From: Labilibacter sediminis
GTDB taxonomy: Bacteria > Bacteroidota > Bacteroidia > Bacteroidales > Marinilabiliaceae
Assembly (NCBI RefSeq): GCF_005877885.1
Contig: NZ_VCHY01000007.1
Span: 62,001 to 126,000, forward strand
Direction of reading: 5' to 3'
Length of the DNA: 64,000 bases
The notes below the pieces were generated by a model. That model ran no database searches. It worked only from the letters and a program-made list of their open reading frames with translations, and had not been told where the DNA came from. A program made the translations under genes and the position numbers. Shown here piece by piece: positions 35,211 to 37,765 of this stretch (within the stretch, counting starts at the first letter, position 1; every line of letters begins with the position of its first letter).

Positions 35211-35594
35211 TCATCGCTCATATAACATATCTTTGTGAAGCCATCTGCGTGCTGCTGACTTTGTTGAAAATACTTGAAAATGGTAATGAAAAGGCTTTAT
35301 TAATTGCTGATATACCATACATATGGCGGTATAAATTGGATCATCAATAACCACAGCAATTTTTAAATCATTAAACCTTTCATTAATCTCCTTATTAATC
35401 GAGTCCAACTCAGATAAATCCCGAAGATTAATATTGGTTCTGCATCTGATAGCATTCAGTAATATCCTATGATTGTTTTGCGTATACTCCAAACTATCTA
35501 AATGTTTTGTGAGCATATCAATAACATCATTAATGGTAATGAACTCATTAACATTCACCTCAATTATCTCCCCTTGTACCGAAATACTAACCAT
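35211..35594 (-). CDS. STAS/SEC14-like hypothetical protein
   Basis: 127-residue soluble protein with alternating strands and helices. The N-terminus is MVSISVQGEIIEVNVNEFIT. The second half, LKIAVVIDDPIYTAICMVYQQ ... FHYHFQVFSTKSAARRWL, closely resembles the end of STAS/SEC14-type (SpoIIAA-like) proteins, where a beta strand, a helix and a final 'VF-x-x-x-x-A-x-x-WL' segment recur. No catalytic residues are evident. It starts 46 bases after the tandem-repeat exported protein gene, on the same strand, so the two are probably co-transcribed. Confidence 0.7.
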   Translation of the reverse strand: MVSISVQGEIIEVNVNEFITINDVIDMLTKHLDSLEYTQNNHRILLNAIRCRTNINLRDLSELDSINKEINERFNDLKIAVVIDDPIYTAICMVYQQLIKPFHYHFQVFSTKSAARRWLHKDMLYER

Positions 35595-35640: not shown

Positions 35641-35877
35641 TTATCTTCCAATTACTATTGGATCTTCTTTTACTACATTATAACGACCGATTACAATAGG
35701 ATCCTCTTTTGCAACATTATAACGTCCAATTACAATAGGATCCTCTTTTGCGACATTATAACGCCCAATTACAATAGGATCTTCTTTAGGACTTGTTGCA
35801 AATGATGAAATAGAAACTGCAAAAAATAATACTAATGTAAGAGCAGAAATTTTAGAAGTTAAAGTAGAAATTTTCAT
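35641..35877 (-). CDS. Exported small protein of 13-residue tandem repeats
   Basis: 78-residue protein. A signal peptide covers residues 1-27 (ISALTLVLFFAVSISSFA). The mature part is almost only the unit KEDPIVIGRYNVA, starting at residues 31, 44, 57 and 70; the fourth unit stops after KEDPIVIGR. The 39-base units differ at silent third positions (for example Gly GGG/GGA/GGT and Val GTC/GTT/GTA), with one Ala-to-Val change, so the peptide rather than the DNA is conserved. No cysteines. I know of no family. A surface structural peptide, a protease-released signal or a stress peptide are all possible. It probably forms an operon with the STAS-like gene and lies downstream of a TPR/HTH regulator. 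Confidence 0.85.
   Translation of the reverse strand: MKISTLTSKISALTLVLFFAVSISSFATSPKEDPIVIGRYNVAKEDPIVIGRYNVAKEDPIVIGRYNVVKEDPIVIGR
35644..35787 (-). repeat. 39-bp in-frame coding tandem repeat (3.7 copies)
   Basis: Three full 39-base units and a 27-base partial encode KEDPIVIGRYNVA. There are no spacers between units, so this is not a CRISPR array. Confidence 0.95.
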
Positions 35878-35943
35878 GATAAACGTTTTTTAAATTGTTT
35901 ATCACAAATATCTAGAGGTCAAGAAGAAATGACGAATTTGCCG

Positions 35944-35964
35944 CGTGACAAAAACGTGACAAAA
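35944..35964. promoter_or_regulatory. Phased direct repeat, candidate regulator site
   Basis: Two perfect copies of CGTGACAAAA (35944-35953 and 35955-35964) are spaced exactly 11 bases apart, one helical turn. They lie 67-87 bases upstream of the tandem-repeat peptide gene and between it and the TPR/HTH regulator gene. A TAGATATTTG segment (35906-35915 on the minus strand) could be a loose -7 region, which would put the repeats at an activator position. Confidence 0.45.
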
Positions 35965-36115: not shown

Positions 36116-37765
36116 TTAACTGGCCAAATCTGAAATTTGTTTTTCACGAAATTCCTGCAAATAAACTTCTAAATTGTCTTCCACATTTAATTTTATACGA
36201 ATTCGCTGCTTGGCTTTTCTGATTGAACTAGGTTGAACATTCTGCACCTTAGCGATGACCTCAATGGGTAATTTTAGACATATCATCACCGAATAACGTA
36301 CTTCAGTTTTTGTCAATTGCGGGAACGACTCTGTAAAAAGATTGATGGTTTCCATATAGCATGTATCAAAACTATCTCCTATATCTCCATCTTCAGCAGC
36401 AAAAGACGGAGTAGATTTTTCCATCGATTTATTTCCCTTTTGTTTTTTACCTGATTGATTTAAACGGTGTTCTAACAATTGTTTTTCACCAATACCTATT
36501 AACAGATTATGAAACTCTTTATTCAATTCTTCAATCTTCGCCTTCTTATTCTTTCTATACAAATAAGTGTATATTCCCAAACCTGTGAGTATAAATATGG
36601 TAATCACCACCACTAAATAAAGCATAAACTCACTGGCCTTTTTCTCTACCTTAAGTTGCACCAGCTGACTCTTCATTAAATCAACCTTATTGTTAATCTC
36701 AAGTACTTTTGCTAACCTCACCTTTTCTTTGGACGAAGTTTCCTGCATCAATTTAAGATAAGCACTTAAATCTTCATATGCTTTGGTATAATTACCTTTC
36801 GCCACATCAATCTGATGCATATAATTATAAGCATACAACATCCTGCTTCCCTGGCTATTTTTTTTATACAATTCTAAGGATCTACTGAAGTATATTTCTG
36901 CAACCCGATAAATTTTCTGCTTATAATAAAGCACTCCCTTAAACTGGTACAAAGCTGGCACAATCAGTTTTCCAACATCATATTTCTCACTTATATCCAA
37001 TGCCTTATCGCAATAATAATGTGCACTATCATATTTTTGCTGCGTATGAAAACTGCTTGCTATGACTTTATATACATTTGCTGCTCTATTATACATTCCC
37101 TTATTTAAGTATATAGAAGCAACCTTATTTAATTCTTTTGGGGATTCTTCCGAATCAATATTAAATAACTGCTCCATAAACTTTGAAAAAAGTATAAAAA
37201 CATCTACCCCAGAAGTCCGTAACATAACGCCCCCCAATTTTAAATCATCAATATATGGCTCTTCCAAGGCATTCTTGCATCTAGCTAACCCTAAATAAGC
37301 TAAGCCTTCTTCACTTCTTTCATTTTCTGTGGCCAATGAAATGGCCTCATAGAAATTTATTTTAGCTTGCTCATATAAACCTGTTCCTTCTGCAATTAAA
37401 CCTAAAAAAAACTGACTTTTTACTAACCATCTTTGATTTTCAGAAATTGTAAACATTGAAATTGCAGACTCCAATTTAACTAGTGCCGAATCCACCTCAA
37501 AACATGTAAAAAGTTTCTGGGCATCCAAATAATCTAGATACCCTTTATATTGTTTTCGATCTTCTAGCGAAAACGTATTCATTAATGAATCTAATTGAAT
37601 TTCTGCTTTTTTAGGATAGTAAACAGAATTAAATTCTATGGATGAAAAAACCTTATCTAACTCGTCATTAGCTATTACCTGGGCTTTTGAATTTTTAAAA
37701 CCCAAACATAAAAACAAGCAAATAAAAACATATAGGTATATACGGTGGGACTTAATGAAATACAT
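36116..37765 (-). CDS. Membrane-anchored TPR protein with C-terminal LuxR-type HTH
   Basis: 549-residue regulator typical of Bacteroidota. A signal peptide or anchor covers residues 1-28. A periplasmic domain of TPR repeats follows (about 60-365, for example AANVYKVIASSFHTQQKYDSAHYYCDKAL), then one membrane helix at about 380-400 (LYLVVVITIFILTGLGIYT) and a cytoplasmic linker. The HTH at about 484-526 is LTKTEVRYSVMICLKLP ... VQPSSIRKAKQRIRIKL. Proteins of this layout sense an envelope or peptide signal through the TPRs and bind DNA from the membrane. It lies 238 bases upstream of the repeat-peptide gene on the same strand, with the phased direct repeat between them. Confidence 0.88.
   Translation of the reverse strand: MYFIKSHRIYLYVFICLFLCLGFKNSKAQVIANDELDKVFSSIEFNSVYYPKKAEIQLDSLMNTFSLEDRKQYKGYLDYLDAQKLFTCFEVDSALVKLESAISMFTISENQRWLVKSQFFLGLIAEGTGLYEQAKINFYEAISLATENERSEEGLAYLGLARCKNALEEPYIDDLKLGGVMLRTSGVDVFILFSKFMEQLFNIDSEESPKELNKVASIYLNKGMYNRAANVYKVIASSFHTQQKYDSAHYYCDKALDISEKYDVGKLIVPALYQFKGVLYYKQKIYRVAEIYFSRSLELYKKNSQGSRMLYAYNYMHQIDVAKGNYTKAYEDLSAYLKLMQETSSKEKVRLAKVLEINNKVDLMKSQLVQLKVEKKASEFMLYLVVVITIFILTGLGIYTYLYRKNKKAKIEELNKEFHNLLIGIGEKQLLEHRLNQSGKKQKGNKSMEKSTPSFAAEDGDIGDSFDTCYMETINLFTESFPQLTKTEVRYSVMICLKLPIEVIAKVQNVQPSSIRKAKQRIRIKLNVEDNLEVYLQEFREKQISDLAS

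What the first reader, a model, noticed from the sequence alone, without database searches (positions are those of the whole stretch)
35641..35877. Exported mini-protein built from a 13-residue tandem repeat
After a clear signal peptide, nearly the whole mature protein is KEDPIVIGRYNVA repeated 3.7 times, ending after KEDPIVIGR. The units differ at silent third positions but the peptide is kept, so the repeat is old and selected at protein level. Each unit holds one Arg: cleavage after Arg would yield near-identical 13-mers, as in some multi-copy peptide precursors. That last step is inference. I know of no named family.
Basis: partly seen in the sequence, partly recalled or inferred. Interest (0 to 1): 0.75.

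Follow-up and report, generated by a model that had tools for sequence, protein, structure and literature searches.

The report
Secreted repeat peptide beside TPR regulator
A marine bacterium appears to export a tiny protein made of near-identical short units, whose gene sits next to a membrane-bound TPR regulator and behind a DNA switch found almost only in related genomes that carry that regulator, which looks like an undescribed peptide-signalling circuit.

Summary
The repeat is real: window 35641-35877 (minus) encodes a signal peptide plus KEDPIVIGRYNV(A/V) x3.7. Units differ almost only silently (pS 0.54, pN 0.035). Homologs occupy the same place in seven of the eight other genus genomes (one, G004, looks broken). 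The core (K/R/E)EDPI(V/I)(I/V) is kept; unit length (11, 13 or 15) and spacer vary between species but hardly within one. Arg is absent from the units of three of seven intact copies, so Arg cleavage is not supported.

The new point is the partner. Each copy lies beside a protein with signal peptide, TPRs, one membrane helix and a GerE-like C-terminus. Eight of ten distant homologs of that protein also lie beside a small, exported, acidic mini-protein, six with (E/D/R)DP. Upstream of all eight genus copies is TTTGTCACRnTTTTGTCACR. In the family it occurs in 10 of 13 genomes with the regulator and 1 of 58 without. In two species it also precedes peptide-export operons.

Best reading (about 0.45): the mini-protein is a multivalent extracytoplasmic ligand of the neighbouring regulator, in a feedback loop. 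Pairing and operator are shown; binding and signalling are inferred.

The parts
35641..35877 (-). 78-aa exported repeat mini-protein
35797..35877 (-). predicted Sec signal peptide (residues 1 to about 27)
   Evidence: crude hydropathy rule; cleavage site by eye
35644..35787 (-). four K-EDPIVIGR modules joined by YNV(A/V) spacers, last one ends the protein
35878..35903 (-). inverted repeat GATAAAC-N12-GTTTATC abutting the start codon; RNA hairpin -5.3 kcal/mol, z -3.3
35905..35914 (-). TAGATATTTG, -7-like promoter element at fixed distance from the operator
   Evidence: motif name recalled
35944..35963 (-). operator-like direct repeat TTTGTCACGTTTTTGTCACG, 11-bp period
36116..37765 (-). 549-aa regulator: N-terminal signal-like segment, TPRs, one TM helix, GerE-like C-terminus
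36860..37081 (-). TPR_12 match (residues 229-302), predicted extracytoplasmic
   Evidence: side of membrane inferred from hydropathy
36572..36628 (-). single TM helix (residues 380-398) followed by basic residues
36176..36358 (-). C-terminal GerE/LuxR-like segment (no Pfam match in the window protein itself; sub-threshold matches in homologs)
35211..35594 (-). 127-aa STAS-like protein (name by eye; Pfam only sub-threshold DUF7793); homolog beside the mini-protein in 6 of 8 genus loci, this one included

Best explanation
The mini-protein is an exported, multivalent peptide ligand. Its repeated (K/R/E)EDPI(V/I)(I/V)xx module is recognised outside the cytoplasm by the TPR domain of the neighbouring single-pass regulator. 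The regulator's cytoplasmic end acts on promoters carrying the TGTCAC direct repeat, including the mini-protein's own, giving a feedback loop that in some species also drives peptide-export operons. Shown by sequence: repeat, selection on units, synteny, the pairing recurring at non-orthologous loci, the operator and its co-occurrence with the regulator, topology by hydropathy. Inferred: that TPR and module bind, that the regulator binds the operator, and that the output is signalling between cells rather than within one envelope.
For: Units kept at amino-acid level while silent sites differ widely: pS/pN .54/.035 (G000).67/.046 (G002).83/.062 (G003).51/.051 (G007).76/.054 (G008); weaker in G006.245/.065. 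In 8 of 9 genus genomes the gene, intact or broken, lies beside the regulator in the same gene order. Ten non-orthologous regulators, seven at 29-36% identity and three of G165 found by profile: 8 of 10 lie beside an acidic exported mini-protein, 6 of these with [EDR]DP, in both orientations, one with its own tandem repeat DEDDPIILPTDI. The same detector finds only the 7 intact mini-proteins in 199 kb of genus sequence. Operator: 30 sites in 9 genus genomes against 0 for the reversed pattern, 30 of 30 outside ORFs of 100 aa or more; T at column +56 in 30 of 34 sites. Family: 10 of 13 genomes with the regulator (E <= 1e-20) have it, 1 of 58 without. Operator also before a TIGR01193 peptide-export operon in the window's genome and a like operon in G007.
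Against: No binding, expression or structure data; the structure job was interrupted and the tool then switched off. Nine of the ten genomes with both regulator and operator are one genus, so the Fisher p-value (6.5e-9) ignores kinship. 11-bp direct repeats are typical of OmpR/PhoB regulators (recalled), not of GerE domains. Two of ten distant loci lack a mini-protein (G019, one of G165); upstreams of the G001a, G005b and both G165 mini-proteins lack the operator, and those of G068 and G072 have altered forms. Mini-proteins at different loci share little beyond the motif. The window regulator's C-terminus has no Pfam match.
Confidence: 0.45

Rival explanations
1. The mini-protein is an output, not a ligand: an exported envelope or surface protein (adhesive, protective or toxin-like) whose gene the TPR regulator controls. 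Repeats give avidity for a surface partner.
For: It sits in a putative regulon with membrane, export and secreted-protein genes; a target gene next to its regulator is common (recalled).
Against: The pairing persists at non-orthologous loci although the mini-protein changes beyond an EDP-type motif; the regulator's TPRs are predicted to face the compartment the mini-protein enters. Neither excludes it.
Confidence: 0.3
2. The TGTCAC site is read by an OmpR/PhoB-type response regulator; the TPR protein is an incidental neighbour.
For: Same 11-bp direct-repeat layout as E. coli PhoB sites, e.g. TGTCATAAAGTTGTCACG at phoA (PMC10294691, passages).
Against: Five of six PBP_like_2 (pstS-type) loci of this genus carry TGTAAC repeats instead, in the window's genome 174 bp before the gene (L145), and the TGTCAC site is absent from 57 of 58 family genomes without the TPR regulator. 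A lineage-specific response regulator is not excluded.
Confidence: 0.13
3. Multi-copy precursor cut after Arg into free 13-mers.
For: Near-identical units; tandem pheromone propeptides are known in Bacillota (PMC11343458, abstract and passages).
Against: Arg absent from units in 3 of 7 intact copies, and the preceding basic residue is missing in G008. Cleavage at another position is not excluded.
Confidence: 0.08
4. Neutral tandem duplication in a non-functional ORF.
For: Tandem repeats arise easily; the G004 copy looks broken.
Against: pS far above pN within the array in six species, and conserved position, promoter and leader.
Confidence: 0.02

Closest known systems
RRNPPA quorum sensing (Rap-Phr, PlcR-PapR, NprR-NprX) of Bacillota
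   Same: Small exported propeptide gene next to a TPR receptor gene (definition read in passages of PMC10075063); tandem pheromone copies in some (PMC11343458, abstract and passages)
   Different: Here Bacteroidota; regulator has a signal-like N-terminus and TM helix with TPRs predicted outside, putative DNA-binding end at the C-terminus, 519-593 aa; no sequence relation shown
E. coli PhoB sites (pho boxes)
   Same: 11-bp direct repeat of TGTCA-type half-sites (PMC10294691, passages)
   Different: pst-type loci of this genus carry TGTAAC repeats; TGTCAC sites lie before other genes
BT3442 family (NF053779), TPR protein of Bacteroides
   Same: Weak match to residues 309-450 of the regulator, 39.2 bits
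   Different: Far below its cut-off of 940; in PMC2954219 (passages) BT_3442 is only a TPR protein in a MACPF cluster
Bacteriocin-type double-glycine peptides with TIGR01193 exporters
   Same: Such an exporter follows a TGTCAC site in the window's genome
   Different: The window mini-protein has a Sec-type signal and no double glycine

Membership tests
RRNPPA quorum-sensing pair | exported propeptide of 10-100 aa | tested here: met
   65-89 aa with crude signal peptide in six of seven intact orthologs; G007 is 114 aa
RRNPPA quorum-sensing pair | receptor with TPRs | tested here: met
   TPR_12 in 14 of 14 aligned regulators
RRNPPA quorum-sensing pair | genes adjacent | tested here: met
   8 of 8 genus orthologs of the regulator (G004 copy broken), 8 of 10 distant ones
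RRNPPA quorum-sensing pair | receptor 250-500 aa | tested here: not met
   519-593 aa among 17 complete rows, starts as first start codon
RRNPPA quorum-sensing pair | intracellular receptor for re-imported peptide | tested here: not met
   hydropathy of the window protein: N-terminal signal-like segment and one TM helix at 380-398; prediction only
RRNPPA quorum-sensing pair | peptide binds receptor | not testable with these tools
   structure prediction unavailable
Arg-processed multi-copy precursor | conserved processing residue between units | tested here: not met
   no Arg in units of G005, G006, G008
Double-glycine bacteriocin or leader peptide | GG leader | tested here: not met
   window protein has a Sec-type N-terminus and no GG (the G006 copy has GG inside its signal peptide); NCBIfam gives no match
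Pho regulon | same box as pst-type genes | tested here: not met
   TGTAAC repeats at five of six PBP_like_2 loci, no better TGTCAY repeat found there
Curli-type amyloid repeat protein | amyloid-forming repeats | not tested
   beta-prone IVI core only, by eye

The most novel reading that the evidence does not exclude
A peptide-signalling system of Gram-negative Bacteroidota: small exported EDP-motif peptides, in one lineage strung as multivalent repeats, are sensed by transmembrane TPR one-component regulators that control their own ligand and, in some species, peptide-export operons. The spacer changes between species while units stay near-uniform within each.
Probability: 0.38. Interest if true: 0.85.

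Novelty: new variant of a known kind. Interest (0 to 1): 0.7.

Why it matters
Peptide quorum sensing is known mostly from Gram-positive bacteria (recalled). A genetically compact ligand-receptor-operator set in Bacteroidota, with selection visible in the ligand itself, would give a testable peptide-signalling system there and an example of an extracytoplasmic TPR sensor that needs no peptide import. Even if the ligand role fails, the paired regulator, mini-protein and operator match no named system in the family libraries scanned or in the nine paper searches made here.

Tried and rejected
Mobile-element origin: no tblastn match at E <= 0.01 in 72,556 plasmid or 50,697 phage records. Known family: for the window mini-protein NCBIfam gives nothing, Pfam one hit below its cut-off, PHROGs two weak hits of unknown function; Pfam gives no hit over its cut-off for the eight distant mini-proteins. 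PhoB as reader of the operator. Wider spread of the regulator: 4 of 393 order genomes at 1e-40 (three of the genus, and G165) and 1 of 395 phylum genomes at 1e-25, the window's own; at most three candidates per genome were scored, so this may understate it. Operator beyond the family: in 393 order genomes, besides three of the genus, two have one 1-mismatch site each, against three hits of the reversed pattern, i.e. chance level. The blastp step failed (empty database); gene order was then read by eye and later confirmed by blastp for all seven other genus loci. There the mini-protein itself is matched by blastp in 5 of 7; G004 and G008 rest on the profile. The homolog of the 127-aa neighbour is found in 5 of those 7. 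An early list of neighbours mixed up strands and was redone. Alignment A3 held an antisense row and was not used further. The regulator fragment L092 (stops inside) was dropped; its neighbours were not examined. Detector rules were set after seeing the mini-proteins; on the ten distant loci it returned ten candidates, of which two (L099, L107; net basic by 5 and by 1) were not counted. Papers: nine searches listed nothing that by title or abstract start describes this system; the library holds open-licence PMC papers only.

Full report
What is there. The ORF at 35641-35877 (minus) is a signal peptide followed almost at once by four K-EDPIVIGR modules with YNVA, YNVA and YNVV between them, the protein stopping after the fourth module. 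Codon comparison of units gives pS 0.54 and pN 0.035. So the units are not fresh copies; the peptide is held by selection.

Relatives. A profile search of the nine genomes held for the genus finds it in eight; G001 (Saccharicrinis aurantiacus) has no match at E <= 0.1. Names come from named contigs that match the G loci in length or position. Units by genome: G002 REDPIVIQQGKMF, 4 modules; G003 (Plebeiobacterium marinum) KEDPIIITRLA, 6; G005 (Labilibacter marinus) KEDPIIIMMGESKVV, 2; G006 KEDPIVIIGSKIV, 4; G007 REDPIIIMCNKVE, 5; G008 (Plebeiobacterium sediminum) EEDPIVVTKLV, 6. G004 carries one KEDPIVIQL at the C-terminus and an apparent frameshift near the start. The protein ends two to four residues after an EDPI(V/I)(I/V) core in G000, G002, G003, G005, G008 and G004; G006 and G007 run on. 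In the six species with four or more modules pS is 0.245-0.83 and pN 0.035-0.065; G005 offers one pair over seven codons. Between species spacer and unit length differ. I read this as every unit answering to the same partner, a partner that differs by species. That reading is inference.

The neighbour. In all eight genomes the gene lies beside the regulator, between an AGCS-like transporter gene and a hexosaminidase-like gene (names by eye; blastp of gene order). The 127-aa STAS-like neighbour is present in six of the eight. The regulator has TPR matches (14 of 14 aligned rows), a hydrophobic N-terminus, one TM helix at 380-398 and a GerE-like C-terminus. The window protein's own C-terminus has no Pfam match; homologs reach GerE only below its cut-off, best 22.1 against 23.5 bits. 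PDB profile matches are TPR proteins, including kinesin light chains.

The pairing is general. I examined ten non-orthologous regulators: G016, G068, G019, G001 (two), G072, the second copy of G005, and three of G165. Eight have an exported mini-protein of 67-86 aa with net acidity of 7 or more nearby, either downstream on the same strand or divergent; G019 and one G165 locus do not. Six of the eight carry [EDR]DP (G068, G001a, G001b, G072, G005b, G165 L107); G016 and G165 L108 do not. G001a has its own tandem repeat. The same rule applied to 199 kb of genus sequence returns only the seven intact orthologs.

The switch. Upstream of all eight genus genes, and of the mini-proteins of G016 and G001b, lies TTTGTCACRnTTTTGTCACR, its TGTCAC half-sites starting 71-92 bp before the start codon; G072 has two TGTCAC 12 bp apart, G068 an altered form by eye; G001a, G005b and both G165 upstreams have none. 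The genus holds 30 sites against 0 for the reversed pattern. Aligned on the repeat, 34 sites (30 of the genus, 3 of G016, 1 of G065) share T at +55 to +57 in 20, 30 and 27, which suggests a fixed distance to a TTTG-type -7 element. In the family, 10 of 13 genomes with the regulator have the site and 1 of 58 without; that one (G065) lies inside a 407-aa ORF. In the order sample the site is at chance level outside this genus. By eye, recognition-helix residues differ between regulators with the site (RK(A/V)KQRI-type) and the two of G001a and G005b whose mini-protein promoters lack it (KTKRRIR). This points to the regulator as reader of the site, but kinship and the pho-box-like layout leave room for a response regulator.

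What else it may control. In the window's genome (seven sites) the repeat precedes genes for a small HTH-like protein, an HlyD-like adaptor and a TIGR01193 peptide cleavage/export transporter (536.6 bits, cut-off 523.85), with a small GG-containing ORF behind them that only reaches sub-threshold bacteriocin matches; G007 has a like operon (by eye), and about 3 kb behind its exporter a peptide with a bacteriocin_sig match of 17.8 bits against 15.7. In G016 two sites precede small exported proteins, 363 and 384 bp on, each followed by a lipoprotein-like gene; one of these was tested and matches TolB_like (49.7 bits). Others precede STAS-like, membrane and TonB-type genes, named by eye.

Judgement. 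Mini-protein family, pairing and operator are solid as sequence facts.

Noticed in passing
window 35878-35903 and orthologs: Inverted repeat forming a hairpin that ends at the start codon in seven of seven intact orthologs folded; z -2.7 to -3.3 in six, -0.96 in G003 (stretch ends chosen by eye). Arms differ between some species while pairing is kept.
   Followed up: partly
L149, L150: TGTCAC repeat before peptide-export operons whose first gene is a small HTH-like protein; the one in L149 itself contains a GG stretch.
   Followed up: partly
L141/L151, L142: G016 TGTCAC sites followed, after a long leader, by a small exported protein (Cys-rich in L142) and a lipoprotein-like gene; the one tested is TolB-like.
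   Followed up: partly
L145 -174 from the gene start; L143, L144, L146, L147 about 1.2-1.3 kb upstream: TGTAAC 11-bp direct repeats at five of six PBP_like_2 loci, a likely Pho box of this genus, one base off the TGTCAC half-site.
   Followed up: no
window 35211-35594; L138, L040, L046, L048, L050: Family of STAS-like proteins, five matches in this genome, one directly behind a TGTCAC site.
   Followed up: no
L089, L099, L106: Mini-proteins of three non-orthologous loci share a C-terminus like TEWILELLGL, ADWILTILGL, VSWLMTLIGF.
   Followed up: no
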